NCBI RefSeq assembly: GCF_027594425.1
Contig: NZ_CP115159.1
Location: forward strand, 2,689,001-2,753,000
Length of the DNA stretch: 64,000 nucleotides
Origin: Zunongwangia sp. HGR-M22
Lineage (GTDB): Bacteria > Bacteroidota > Bacteroidia > Flavobacteriales > Flavobacteriaceae
Reading direction: 5' to 3'
Made by a program: the position numbers and the translations under genes. This document shows, piece by piece, positions 52,939 through 58,815 of the stretch (its first letter is position 1; each line of letters starts with the position of its first letter). Under the pieces are notes generated by a model. That model saw only the letters and a list, made by a program, of their open reading frames with translations. It was not told where the DNA came from and searched no databases.

Positions 52939-54543
52939 ATGGCCAAAAGTTCAATTTCTCCCTGGAAGAAATTATTTCATCTTCTTCAATTGGAAAGGCG
53001 TGATATTCTAAATGTTTTGTACTACGCCATATTTGCCGGGCTTATAGGACTTACAGTACCTTTGGGAATTCAAGCGATTATTAATTTAATCCAAGGAGCC
53101 CAGGTTTCAACCTCATGGATTTTACTTACTGGCTTGGTGACTACCGGTGTTGCTTTTGTAGGGGTCTTGCAGGTTCTTCAATTAGATTTGGTTGAAATTA
53201 TACAGGAGAAAGTCTTTGCTAGAATTTCTTTCGAGTTTATTTATAGATTTCCTAAAATGCGGGTTAGAGAATTAGAGAACTACTACCCCCCAGAACTTGC
53301 CAATCGCTTTTTTGATGTCTTGACTCTGCAAAAAGGACTTCAGAAATTATTATTAGAATTTCCCGCTGCGGTTATTCAAATTATATTCGGTCTTTTACTG
53401 CTATCCTTTTACCATCCTTTTTTTATCGGTTTTAGTTTATTGCTACTTGTATTAATTTTTGTGATTTTTAAATTCACTCTCACAAAAGCTTTAAAAAGTA
53501 GTATTATGGAATCCAAAAAGAAATATCACGTAGCTTTTTGGATACAACAGGTAGCCGGTAATTTTAGAGTTTTTAAAACTTTTCCAGACGAATACGAGCA
53601 AAATAAAAACGACAAACTCGTTACCAAATATTTAGACGAAAGACAAAATCACTTTAATACCGTAAAAAATCAGTTTAAACTAATGGTAGGTTTTAAGGTA
53701 ATTGTAACCTTAGGATTACTACTAATTGGGGGGTTATTAGTCTTAAATCAACAAATGAATATTGGACAATTTGTAGCCGCAGAAATTATAATTGTGATGG
53801 TCATCAATTCAGTTGAAAAAATTGGGTTTAGTTTAGAAACCATTTACGATATGGTAACTGCTGTAGAAAAATTGGACGAAGTAATTTCTAAAAAATTAGA
53901 TCGTAAAACAGGAATTAATGGAAACGATGTAAAACTTTTTCCTATTAAGATTGAAGGTCTTCATATAGAAAAAACTGTGGTTCCAGATCTTGTAATCAAT
54001 AGAGGCGACAAGATTAACCTTGTAGGATCTGAAGTGGTTATAAATGATTTCTTCCACTACCTCTCTGGAATGAAGAAAACCGATGAAGGCCGAATTTATC
54101 TTGACAAACAAGAAATAGCAAATATCAATATAGATAAATATCGAGATAAAATTGGATTGCTATTTAATACTGATAGTATTTTTGAAGGAACCATCTGGGA
54201 AAACCTTACCTTAAGCAATCCTAATATGAGTTCAGATCGTGTTTATGATATGCTAGAAGATTTTAAAATTATCGATCACATTAATAAGCTTCCCGAATCT
54301 TTAAACACCTACATTTTTTCAGGAAGTAGTAAAATAGGCGCTAAAACAGCAAAAAAAATATGCTTAATTCGTGAATTACTCAAACAACCAGAAATCTTGA
54401 TGATAGAGAAAGGATTTATACTTTCTAATAGTGATTTACAAGCATTAATTAAATGCGCAAATAGAGAAAATACCAGTATATTTCTTGCAGACGACAAAGA
54501 GCAAATTGAAGATTTCGAACCGCTTTATTTAAAAAGAAAATAA
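52939..54543 (+). CDS. ABC exporter-like protein with a degenerate, probably dead ATPase domain
   Basis: A 534-residue protein with a type I exporter membrane domain (about 1-320, five or six helices, e.g. FAGLIGLTVPLGIQAIINLI and IIFGLLLLSFYHPFFIGF) and an ABC nucleotide-binding-domain fold (about 335-534). Every catalytic motif is altered. The P-loop position (363-371) reads GSEVVINDF with no GKS/T. The Q-loop Gln is Asn (LLFNTDSIF). The LSGGQ signature is replaced by SSKIGAKTAKK. Walker B is LMIEKGF rather than LDE (485-492). The His-switch position is ADD (517-519). The frame is intact and the gene heads a tidy HlyD/TolC operon, so selection for a non-ATPase role is likely. Confidence 0.88.
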   Translation: MAKSSISPWKKLFHLLQLERRDILNVLYYAIFAGLIGLTVPLGIQAIINLIQGAQVSTSWILLTGLVTTGVAFVGVLQVLQLDLVEIIQEKVFARISFEFIYRFPKMRVRELENYYPPELANRFFDVLTLQKGLQKLLLEFPAAVIQIIFGLLLLSFYHPFFIGFSLLLLVLIFVIFKFTLTKALKSSIMESKKKYHVAFWIQQVAGNFRVFKTFPDEYEQNKNDKLVTKYLDERQNHFNTVKNQFKLMVGFKVIVTLGLLLIGGLLVLNQQMNIGQFVAAEIIIVMVINSVEKIGFSLETIYDMVTAVEKLDEVISKKLDRKTGINGNDVKLFPIKIEGLHIEKTVVPDLVINRGDKINLVGSEVVINDFFHYLSGMKKTDEGRIYLDKQEIANINIDKYRDKIGLLFNTDSIFEGTIWENLTLSNPNMSSDRVYDMLEDFKIIDHINKLPESLNTYIFSGSSKIGAKTAKKICLIRELLKQPEILMIEKGFILSNSDLQALIKCANRENTSIFLADDKEQIEDFEPLYLKRK

Positions 54544-54554
54544 AATTAATATAA

Positions 54555-55937
54555 ATGATCAATCTTTCTAATACAAAATTAGGCGGAAAAGTAAAGTTCG
54601 AAGACTTTAATGCTTTTTCGCTGATCGTGAAAAGAAGTCACCATAAGCTTCTTTCTAGGATTTTGTTAGGAACTTTTGTGTTTTTACTCATATTACTATT
54701 TTTCCCCTGGACGCAAACCATAAGTAGTAAAGGTTACGTAACTACATTGAAGCCCGATCAAAGACCCCAAACCCTGCAATCACCTATTCCGGGACAGATA
54801 CAAAAATGGTATGTTCAGGAAGGTGACTTTGTTAAGAAAGGAGATACGATTCTTCATATTACAGAAGTAAAAAATGAATATTTCGATCCTCTTTTAGTTG
54901 AAAGAACAGGCAATCAATTAACCTCCAAAAGTGGATCTTTAGAATCTTATGGTCAAAAAATTGAAGCGCTACAAAGGCAAATGCAGGCTATTCAGCGTGA
55001 AAGAGAATTAAAACTAGAACAAACCAGAAATAAGAGAAAGCAGGCAGATCTTAAAATAAATAGTGACAGTATTTCTTTAGAAGCAGCCAAAGTAAACCTA
55101 AGCATTGCCGAAAGACAATACAAACGTACAGCTGAATTATATGAAGAGGGTTTAAAGTCTAGGTTAGATCTAGAAACAAAGCAATCCAAATTTCAAGAAT
55201 CGCAGGCCAAAGTTATCGATCTCGAAAACAAATTGCTAAGTAGCAAAAATCAGCTATTAAATGCTATAATGGAAGTTAATCGTATTGAAGCCAATTATAT
55301 CGATAAAATTAATAAAATTGAAGGTGAAATTTCTACGGCTAACTCATCCAGATTCGACGCTGAAGCACAAGTCTCAAAACTAGAAAATTCGCTTTCAAAT
55401 TATCAAATAAGAAAAAATTTATTGTACATACGTGCGCCTCAGGATGGCTATATAAACCGGGCTCTAAAACAAGGTATTGGCGAGACTTTTAAAGAAGGTG
55501 AAAAACTGGTTACTATTATGCCTTCAAATATAGATATCGCGGTAGAAACTTATGTAGAGCCTATAGATTTGCCATTGCTTAATATCGGCGATCATGTAAG
55601 AGTACAATTTGATGGCTGGCCTGCGATCGTGTTCAGCGGTTGGCCGAACGCATCTTTTGGTACTTATGGTGCAAAAGTAGTAGCTATAGAAAATTTTATA
55701 AGCGATAATGGTAAATATCGAATTCTACTAACTCCAGATCTTAAAGAAAGGGATAAACATCAATGGCCAGAAGCTTTACGTGTAGGTTCTGGTGCAAGAA
55801 CCTTAGCTTTATTAGAAGATGTGCCAATATGGTACGAACTGTGGCGAAAATTAAATGGATTTCCTCCTAATTATTATACCAGCGCAGAAAAACAAACAGA
55901 CGGAAAGAAAAGTGATTCCAAAGATTCTAAAAAGTAA
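54555..55937 (+). CDS. HlyD-type membrane fusion protein
   Basis: A 460-residue periplasmic adaptor with one N-terminal transmembrane helix (LLGTFVFLLILLFFPW, about 35-55). A lipoyl half-motif follows (LQSPIPGQIQKWYVQEGDFVKKGDTILHI, about 75-105). Then come a long coiled coil (about 125-290) and the second lipoyl half (LLYIRAPQDGYINRALKQGIGETFKEGEKLVTIMPS). A beta-barrel domain and a Lys/Ser tail close the protein. It bridges an inner-membrane transporter to a TolC channel. It starts 11 nt after the ABC gene and ends one base before the TolC-like start. Confidence 0.93.
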   Translation: MINLSNTKLGGKVKFEDFNAFSLIVKRSHHKLLSRILLGTFVFLLILLFFPWTQTISSKGYVTTLKPDQRPQTLQSPIPGQIQKWYVQEGDFVKKGDTILHITEVKNEYFDPLLVERTGNQLTSKSGSLESYGQKIEALQRQMQAIQRERELKLEQTRNKRKQADLKINSDSISLEAAKVNLSIAERQYKRTAELYEEGLKSRLDLETKQSKFQESQAKVIDLENKLLSSKNQLLNAIMEVNRIEANYIDKINKIEGEISTANSSRFDAEAQVSKLENSLSNYQIRKNLLYIRAPQDGYINRALKQGIGETFKEGEKLVTIMPSNIDIAVETYVEPIDLPLLNIGDHVRVQFDGWPAIVFSGWPNASFGTYGAKVVAIENFISDNGKYRILLTPDLKERDKHQWPEALRVGSGARTLALLEDVPIWYELWRKLNGFPPNYYTSAEKQTDGKKSDSKDSKK

Positions 55938-57393: not shown

Positions 57394-58815
57394 CTAAGTG
57401 GTGATAGGCTTCTTCTGCATCATCTTGCTAAAAACCAAATACAAAACTCCACACAACAGCCAAGCGGGAAGGGTTACGAATGATAAGAAAACATCAAATT
57501 GAACCGAAATAAAGTAAAAAACACAGAAGCTAATTACCCAAGCCCAAAATACCGCCTGATTAAATTTAGTTCCAGACTTTTCAGCGTAGAAAGATTGTAT
57601 ACCGAACTTTTTTCCGAAGAAATATTCAAAGACAATAATGGCGCCTATAGGTGCTAATATAAACCCGTAGAGCGCTACAAAACCTAATAGTTTCATTGCA
57701 AAGGCAGGGAATAATCCTGCAACAGTGGCCACGGTTCCTGCGATAATCGTCACCCAGGCGGTTGAAACTTTAGGGATGATGGCCTGAAAAGCTAAACCAG
57801 CACGATAGATTGTAGGGTTTGCGGTAGTCCAACCTGCTAAAACGACTGCAATAATTCCGAAGACTCCAATTGCATTATACGCTAATGGACCCGGCGCAAC
57901 AGATGGTGCTTCACCGCTTGCCGATATAGCCTGAGCTTCCGGAGATTTTAAATATACCGCATACAATAATGCTGCAGCAATCCAAGCAATATAATGACCA
58001 ATATATATACCGGCAGCGGTGGTCCATCCTGCACTTGGTTTTTTCGCAAAACGGAAAACCGATAAGTCCGACATCCCAATATGCATTGCCGCGTTGGCAA
58101 ACCAAGACCATAAGAATACGTGCCAAAACGTATATTTAATCTGCCCGGGGAAAGGTTCGCTTCCTTCGCCCCAAATATTCCAAAAATCAGAGAAACTATG
58201 CACATCTAAATTCACTAAAGAAACAATTCCGCAGATCACAAAAGCAGCTACGATAATCGGACTCATCCAATTGGCAGCTTTTGCTACGGTATTATAACCT
58301 TTGGCCGCGATCACAGAAATTACCGCTCCGATTGCCAATACGATAATTACCCAAGTAGCACTATTGGGCATTGTATCGGTGAGTTTTGGCATCTCCATAT
58401 CGAATGGAACACCAACTGCCGTAGCAGAAACCGTGATCATCGCTCCGGCCAAGAAGCAGAATAGAATTCCATTGGCCAAATTGTAAACTGTAACAAGTCG
58501 TTTTCCGCAGATTTTTTCTAAATGGTAATAAAGAGTATATCGAAACTTTGTGCCTATTTCAGCCGTTAAAAAACGCCAGCTCAAAACCGCCATTAAATTT
58601 CCTAGCAATAATCCAATAATTAAGTCGAAAGCACTAACTCCGGTAGTCAAAAAAAGTGGCCCGATCACAAACTCGGTTCCTGCCGCGTGCTCTCCGGCAT
58701 ACATTCCTAGAAAACTTTTCCAGCTTTTTAATTTGGATTCTGGTACGCGTTCACGCTCGAATTCTCCCGAAATTTCTTCGGTTAATATTTCTTCTTCTAT
58801 GTGTGCCTGACTCAT
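57394..58815 (-). CDS. NCS1-type (purine-cytosine permease family) transporter
   Basis: A 473-residue membrane protein with about twelve helices after a charged N-terminus. The opening GEHAAGTEFVIGPLFLTTGV and the helix 6-8 region (WSWFANAAMHIGMSDLSVFRFAKK, TTANPTIYRAGLAFQ) match nucleobase-cation-symport-1 permeases, which take up purines, cytosine, hydantoin or vitamins. The actual substrate is unknown. It is the last gene of a same-strand run with rhamnose-pathway-type genes, so it may import something made or used there. Confidence 0.88.
   Translation of the reverse strand: MSQAHIEEEILTEEISGEFERERVPESKLKSWKSFLGMYAGEHAAGTEFVIGPLFLTTGVSAFDLIIGLLLGNLMAVLSWRFLTAEIGTKFRYTLYYHLEKICGKRLVTVYNLANGILFCFLAGAMITVSATAVGVPFDMEMPKLTDTMPNSATWVIIVLAIGAVISVIAAKGYNTVAKAANWMSPIIVAAFVICGIVSLVNLDVHSFSDFWNIWGEGSEPFPGQIKYTFWHVFLWSWFANAAMHIGMSDLSVFRFAKKPSAGWTTAAGIYIGHYIAWIAAALLYAVYLKSPEAQAISASGEAPSVAPGPLAYNAIGVFGIIAVVLAGWTTANPTIYRAGLAFQAIIPKVSTAWVTIIAGTVATVAGLFPAFAMKLLGFVALYGFILAPIGAIIVFEYFFGKKFGIQSFYAEKSGTKFNQAVFWAWVISFCVFYFISVQFDVFLSFVTLPAWLLCGVLYLVFSKMMQKKPITT

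What the first reader, a model, noticed from the sequence alone, without database searches (positions are those of the whole stretch)
52939..54543. ABC exporter subunit with every ATPase motif lost, kept in an intact HlyD-TolC operon
The protein has the ABC exporter shape, but the P-loop Lys-Ser/Thr, Q-loop Gln, LSGGQ signature, Walker B Asp-Glu and switch His are all replaced. The frame is uninterrupted and its partners start 11 nt and 1 nt after the preceding stops. A dead exporter under apparent selection implies a different energy source, a regulatory or scaffolding role, or pairing with a second active ABC protein encoded elsewhere. Degenerate sites in heterodimeric exporters are known, but a full loss in a single subunit with its own adaptor and outer-membrane channel is unusual.
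Basis: partly seen in the sequence, partly recalled or inferred. Interest (0 to 1): 0.75.

Follow-up and report, generated by a model that had tools for sequence, protein, structure and literature searches.

The report
ABC exporter family without its ATPase
A bacterial export pump of the ABC type has kept its membrane half, its adaptor and its outer-membrane channel while its ATP-burning engine first lost its working parts and, in some relatives, disappeared altogether, which suggests that these pumps run on something other than ATP.

Summary
The 534-aa gene (52939-54543) heads an ABC–HlyD–TolC operon and has lost every ATPase motif. All six same-genus genomes share the loss. Among 169 full-length relatives sampled across its class, none has LSGGQ, 5 keep the Q-loop Gln, 12 the Walker B Asp-Glu pair, 10 the switch His; 134 keep Walker A. 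Of 20 out-of-class relatives read, 17 keep Walker A and B and mostly the His, so the ancestor probably hydrolysed ATP. In two separate clades the ATPase domain is gone: five genomes have a transmembrane-domain-only gene abutting hlyD, and 38 contigs fuse that domain straight to HlyD. The membrane part keeps a mostly charged set (E86, K132, S192, K195, E282) in all architectures, absent from the canonical exporters compared bar one Lys. Best reading: an ABC-derived membrane core working with HlyD/TolC without ATP hydrolysis, perhaps driven by the proton-motive force, as in the SbmA family, which is also thought to derive from an ABC transporter by NBD loss. ATP independence is well supported; energy source is inferred and cargo unknown. 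Pairing with an active ABC partner is unlikely.

The parts
52939..54543 (+). ABC-exporter-like protein, 534 aa; TMD about residues 1-318, pseudo-NBD about residues 319-534
53194..53196 (+). E86, in 181 of 181 class members of all architectures (D or E in the 17 out-of-class relatives L322-L338)
53332..53334 (+). K132, in 181 of 181 class members
53782..53784 (+). E282 in TM6, E in 180 of 181, D in 1
53815..53820 (+). E293-K294 in TM6, E in 171 and K in 173 of 181
54025..54051 (+). Walker A position, degenerate (G-SEVVINDF)
54166..54168 (+). Q-loop position, Gln replaced by Asn
54334..54348 (+). ABC signature position, IGAKT for LSGGQ
54394..54411 (+). Walker B position, ILMIEK; Asp-Glu replaced by Glu-Lys
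54490..54492 (+). switch His position, Asp
54555..55937 (+). HlyD-type periplasmic adaptor, 460 aa
55939..57336 (+). TolC-type outer-membrane channel (OEP)
   Evidence: start chosen by signal-peptide-like sequence

Best explanation
This is a three-part exporter whose inner-membrane part descends from a peptidase-containing/type-1-secretion-like ABC exporter but no longer hydrolyses ATP. The TMD, with HlyD and TolC, is the working unit. The NBD is a pseudo-ATPase kept as a structural, possibly ligand-sensing, piece in most lineages and discarded in two. Shown: motif loss, its spread in the sample, the NBD-less and fused forms, the operon, and the conserved TMD set. Follows from that: ATP hydrolysis by this subunit is not needed. 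Inferred: transport through the TMD is driven by the proton-motive force, with E282/E293 in TM6 and the E86/K132/K195 cluster as candidate proton or ion sites. Cargo unknown. My split: ATP-hydrolysis-independent about 0.85; proton-motive-force-driven given that, about 0.55.
For: (1) Of 169 full-length class members: LSGGQ 0, Q-loop Gln 5, Walker B D-E pair 12, switch His 10; none keeps more than 4 of 6 features. (2) Five genomes (three families) have a TMD-only gene of 333-339 aa; the adaptor overlaps it by 8 nt in four and starts 34 nt after it in one, with TolC next. (3) 38 distinct contigs carry TMD-HlyD fusions: 7 in the class sample plus 36 in the named set, less 5 that are the same contigs by length. 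(4) Two separate losses: each form is one clade in both trees, and one NBD-less clade is rejected (p-AU 8e-5; the groups were seen in the first tree before this test). (5) E86, K132, Y158, S192, K195, Y231, G264 and K311 are in 181 of 181 class members. The six canonical paralogs have none of E86, K132, S192, E282, E293 or K294; they share G264 (5 of 6), Arg at 311, and single matches at Y158, K195, Y231 and D304. ComA and PCAT1 lack E86, K132, S192, K195 and E282 in the printed alignments. (6) The second coupling-loop region is conserved where Walker A remains (F212 in 133 of 134) but mostly deleted in fusions (K213 column gapped in 25 of 36) and altered in TMD-only forms (R207 in 0 of 5). 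(7) Purifying selection in the genus (median dN/dS TMD 0.024, NBD 0.072; 11 and 13 of 15 pairs usable, dS near saturation). (8) The family adaptor was found next to 173 of 174 ABC genes that are not fusions. (9) Precedents: SbmA-type transporters, proposed to have lost NBD and coupling helices from an ABC ancestor and driven by protons (PMC13316013, passages and section 6); LmrA and MsbA membrane domains without NBD reported to carry out ion-coupled transport (PMC6155054, PMC4979069, passages).
Against: No transport, ATPase or energetics data. The conserved TMD set is also in the 17 out-of-class relatives that keep most ATPase motifs, so it did not arise to replace ATP and may serve cargo or HlyD binding. 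E282/E293 do not fall at the LmrA E314 position by offset to the Walker A Lys. The NBD-less clades did not gain a common set of acids: fusions gained R83, E243, K247, TMD-only forms others. Two Novosphingobium relatives lack E293, K294 and K311, and one lacks E86. In the LmrA study the NBD-less form gave no current under ATP plus membrane potential, and NBD-less MsbA was less efficient than the whole protein. The pseudo-NBD is kept under selection in the window's genus and present in most lineages, so it does something not explained here. The fusion model is poor (pLDDT 69.8, pTM 0.41).
Confidence: 0.52

Rival explanations
1. Scaffold: the TMD no longer moves cargo. It anchors and arranges HlyD so that HlyD-TolC can act as a passive or periplasm-fed conduit, or serve another pump.
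For: TMD-HlyD fusion fixes the 1:1 ratio reported for HlyB-HlyD (three HlyB dimers with six HlyD, PMC11026475, passage); NBD dispensable twice; the invariant residues could be an assembly interface.
Against: By helix limits (no coordinates available) many invariants lie along intracellular helix extensions and in TM6 rather than on the periplasmic side where HlyD's body sits; a mere anchor would not obviously need such conservation.
Confidence: 0.25
2. ATPase in trans: an active ABC exporter or a separate NBD encoded elsewhere powers the complex.
For: Heterodimeric exporters with one degenerate site exist (TM287/288, TmrAB; passages); the genome has five other ABC-exporter matches; in the YddA family separately encoded TMD and NBD are reported.
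Against: No LSGGQ and no Walker A/B in the window protein, so no composite site can form with a partner; no paralog above 22% identity; second coupling loop mostly lost in fusions; only two short weak NBD matches (E 0.03, 0.5) in the roughly 20 kb loci of seven NBD-less genes, while three of four control loci gave E 4e-12 to 4e-23 and the fourth, the window's own, none. Whole genomes of NBD-less members were not searched for a distant NBD.
Confidence: 0.08
3. Residual unconventional ATPase in lineages that keep Walker A.
For: 134 of 169 keep the Walker A consensus; two f49 proteins keep Walker A, D-E and His; four of eight f44 proteins keep an LSG.Q-like signature.
Against: Cannot apply to the window genus (Walker A lost), to the TMD-only or to the fusion forms.
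Confidence: 0.1
4. Pseudogene decay.
For: Motifs lost.
Against: Frames open in 6 of 6 same-genus genomes, low dN/dS, conserved operon over the class.
Confidence: 0.02

Closest known systems
SbmA/BacA (SLiPT) secondary peptide importers
   Same: ABC-exporter-type TMD without NBD or coupling helices, proposed to derive from a YddA-like ABC ancestor (PMC13316013, passages and section 6)
   Different: Importer; no SbmA_BacA Pfam hit at E 0.1 for the window protein or at E 0.05 for the TMD-only L073, only ABC_membrane (plus ABC_tran in the window); here HlyD/TolC partners, and intermediates with a pseudo-NBD survive
Peptidase-containing ABC transporters and type 1 secretion (ComA, PCAT1, HlyB with HlyD and TolC)
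   Same: TMD profile hits ComA 8e-14, PCAT1 2e-8, HlyB 1e-5; HlyD and TolC partners in one operon
   Different: Those are working ATPases (recalled); E86, K132, S192, K195 and E282 absent from ComA and PCAT1 (HlyB alignment not printed)
Engineered LmrA-MD and MsbA-MD
   Same: Membrane domain without NBD is reported to carry out ion-coupled drug transport (PMC6155054, PMC4979069, passages)
   Different: Laboratory truncations; LmrA E314 is not at the E282/E293 positions
Heterodimeric exporters with one degenerate site (TM287/288, TmrAB)
   Same: Degenerate NBD residues
   Different: They keep one working site (recalled; passage for TmrAB); here neither can form

Membership tests
Type IV ABC exporter (ABC_membrane + ABC_tran) | Six-helix exporter TMD | tested here: met
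   PF00664 6e-7; model helices; Foldseek to PCAT1 and others
Type IV ABC exporter (ABC_membrane + ABC_tran) | NBD with Walker A, Q, LSGGQ, Walker B D-E and switch His | tested here: not met
   all lost in the window protein; controls keep them, with small variants
Type 1 secretion system | Inner-membrane ABC part, HlyD adaptor and TolC channel encoded together | tested here: met
Type 1 secretion system | ATP-energised inner-membrane part | tested here: not met
   sequence only: motifs lost or NBD absent; activity itself not testable
SLiPT (SbmA/BacA) | SbmA_BacA domain match | tested here: not met
   no such hit at E 0.1 (window protein) or E 0.05 (TMD-only L073)
SLiPT (SbmA/BacA) | Proton-coupled transport with glutamate ladder | not testable with these tools
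   conserved acids E86, E282, E293 noted; coupling not shown

The most novel reading that the evidence does not exclude
A second, independent natural conversion of an ABC exporter into a secondary (ion-driven) transporter, this time inside a HlyD-TolC envelope-spanning exporter, with every stage alive today: near-complete ATPase, pseudo-ATPase, no ATPase domain, and the adaptor fused in its place.
Probability: 0.45. Interest if true: 0.92.

Novelty: new variant of a known kind. Interest (0 to 1): 0.82.

Why it matters
Whether ABC exporters can be powered by ion gradients has been argued from engineered truncations, and SbmA was the one natural NBD-less example met in the papers consulted here. 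This family supplies a graded natural series in which ATPase motifs, then the domain, vanish while the membrane part and the envelope-spanning partners stay. It makes the question directly testable and gives residues to test. It also means that genes of this family annotated 'ABC transporter ATP-binding protein' (as in the Aureibacter and Riemerella records) are probably not working ATPases.

Tried and rejected
Lone decay or pseudogene: rejected by shared losses in six genomes and low dN/dS. Heterodimer with a close paralog: no paralog over 22% identity. Assembly artefact for NBD-less forms: five TMD-only loci with the adaptor abutting or overlapping, one from a single-contig 7 Mb genome (G489), and 38 fusion contigs; all 36 named fusions are metagenome-assembled, so no isolate genome with a fusion was seen. 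LmrA E314 equivalence of E293: offset to the Walker A Lys is 74 in LmrA (numbers from PMC6155054) against 82-87 for nearly all rows here; not supported. TetR-like regulator elsewhere in the window genome: none at E 1e-3, without a positive control. N-terminal extra domain of about 130-180 aa in some relatives: no Pfam match, weak alignment, left unnamed.

Rows left out before counting: of 147 class genomes with a match, 142 are in the census; G272, G289, G291 and G427 were cut short in their contigs and G245 was not fetched; 40 further genomes come from the genus and family searches, where only part of the 118 family hits was read (48 full-length proteins of the window's family in all). L077 and L194, cut by contig ends, were dropped after alignment. 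L248 was truncated and not counted; L230 and L259, truncated fusions, are among the 38 but not among the 36 used for residue counts. L173 is only the part of a gene after an in-frame stop, and counts among the 169. Of 27 out-of-class matches, 20 were read.

Literature: full-text searches of the open-licence library listed no paper, by title and start of abstract, on an ATPase-less HlyD-TolC exporter or a TMD-HlyD fusion; only 10 of 94 papers were listed, and most subscription papers and all preprints are outside that library, so this is not proof of absence.

Full report
What is there. The gene at 52939-54543 is a 534-aa ABC-exporter-like protein followed by hlyD (11 nt gap) and tolC (1 nt gap from the likely start). 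The window lies in a 4.04 Mb single-contig genome. A same-genus genome, G005, is one contig of 5,128,187 bp, the size published for Zunongwangia profunda SM-A87 (PMC2864250, passages seen), so the window is most likely a Zunongwangia relative (inference from size). That its class is called Bacteroidia in GTDB is recalled.

The motifs. Against six canonical paralogs (five from this genome, one from G005) as controls, the window has no Walker A Lys, Q-loop Gln, LSGGQ, Walker B Asp-Glu or switch His. The controls keep Walker A, Gln and His in 6 of 6, strict LSGGQ in 4 and the catalytic Glu in 5. All six same-genus genomes share the losses. At family level 118 of 199 genomes have a relative at E 1e-60, at class level 147 of 295 at E 1e-40, and in a phylum-wide draw 76 of 296 with a TMD profile at E 1e-30.

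Census. 183 proteins from 182 genomes (142 of the 147 class genomes, 40 from the genus and family searches) were aligned. Two cut by contig ends were dropped, leaving 169 with an NBD, 5 TMD-only and 7 TMD-HlyD fusions. Of the 169: Walker A consensus 134, Q-loop Gln 5, LSGGQ 0, Walker B Asp 48, catalytic Glu 26 (both 12), switch His 10. Twenty out-of-class relatives of the 27 matched were read. Seventeen keep Walker A 17, Asp 17, Glu 16, His 14, but none has the Q-loop Gln or a strict LSGGQ; a few have LSTGQ. The other three (L339-L341) are degenerate like the class members and fall among class rows in the tree. So most catalytic parts were probably lost within the group that holds the class, and the Walker A Lys later and repeatedly (fewest changes 11 on the 150-row tree). 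In the window's clade the genus, L091 and Mesonia L273 form one branch without Walker A; Mesonia L283 and L287, not in the tree, look the same.

The NBD can go. In L072-L076 the ABC gene ends after the TMD (333-339 aa); the adaptor overlaps it by 8 nt in four and starts 34 nt after it in L073, with TolC next. In the fusion form the TMD runs directly into HlyD in one chain of 740-836 aa with TolC following: 38 distinct contigs, the 36 named ones all metagenome-assembled. A tree of TMD plus HlyD puts the TMD-only rows in one clade and the fusions in another (150 rows, FastTree; 76 rows, IQ-TREE), and forcing all NBD-less rows together is rejected (p-AU 8e-5; the grouping was known from the first tree, and letter make-up differs among rows, which can mislead). 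In the roughly 20 kb loci of seven NBD-less genes a canonical NBD gave only two short weak matches (E 0.03 and 0.5); three of four positive controls were found at E 4e-12 or better, and the fourth, the window's own degenerate NBD, was not.

What is kept. E86, K132, Y158, S192, K195, Y231, G264 and K311 are in 181 of 181; E282 in 180 with one Asp; E293 171, K294 173, D304 178. The six canonical paralogs have none of E86, K132, S192, E282, E293 or K294, with single matches at Y158, K195, Y231 and D304, Arg at 311 and a shared G264 in 5. ComA and PCAT1 lack E86, K132, S192, K195 and E282. The 17 out-of-class relatives with most ATPase motifs do have the set, with D or E at 86 and E in 16 of 17 at 282, so it belongs to the family, not to ATPase loss as such. 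Second coupling-loop residues (R207, F212, K213) are conserved where Walker A remains and lost or altered in NBD-less forms. Within the genus both TMD and NBD are under purifying selection, with the warning that dS is near saturation.

Spread. Plasmid records show the family in Persicobacter, Aureibacter and Riemerella, and more distant relatives (22-26% identity) in Novosphingobium, Sphingobium and Croceicoccus (19 records). Two Novosphingobium proteins examined have a badly degenerate NBD; they keep K132, Y158, S192, K195, Y231, E282 and D304 but not E293, K294 or K311, and one lacks E86. One is annotated beside HlyD and TolC.

Mechanism. The argument for no ATP hydrolysis is strong: in the window protein no site can be formed by a homodimer or with a partner, and two clades do without the domain. 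What drives export is inferred. Proton coupling is preferred because a TMD of the same fold (SbmA) is thought to have made this switch and lacks coupling helices (PMC13316013, passages and section 6), and because isolated LmrA and MsbA membrane domains are reported to carry out ion-coupled transport (PMC6155054, PMC4979069, passages), though not in every assay. A pure scaffold for HlyD-TolC is the main rival; the 1:1 fusion fits the published HlyB:HlyD ratio (PMC11026475, passage). Cargo is unknown. A TetR-like regulator often sits directly upstream (same strand in 92 of 167 class full-length loci with room to see it and 36 of 44 named or out-of-class ones; divergent in 5 of 6 class and 23 of 33 named fusions; 0 of 5 TMD-only and 0 of the 17 out-of-class loci L322-L338) but has no match in the window genome.

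Noticed in passing
upstream of ABC gene in relatives, e.g. L107:8755-9423: TetR-like regulator next to the operon in many relatives (same strand in full-length forms, divergent in most fusions), found in 0 of 5 TMD-only loci and with no match in the window genome.
   Followed up: partly
N-terminal about 130-180 aa of L079, L082, L085 and of out-of-class relatives such as L323, L326, L329: Extra N-terminal domain; no Pfam match for L079, L082, L085; weakly alignable. Perhaps a degenerate peptidase-like domain as in HlyB-type exporters (guess).
   Followed up: partly
L342, L343 (Novosphingobium plasmids): Alphaproteobacterial relatives with a strongly degenerate NBD; L342 has HlyD and TolC annotated downstream.
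   Followed up: partly
57394-58815, - strand: 473-aa membrane-permease-like protein downstream with no Pfam, NCBIfam or PDB sequence hit at E 0.1.
   Followed up: partly
L212-L246, L259: All named fusion genes come from metagenome-assembled Bacteroidota genomes; most carry no family name, a few are labelled Sphingobacteriaceae, Chitinophagaceae or Flavobacteriales.
   Followed up: no
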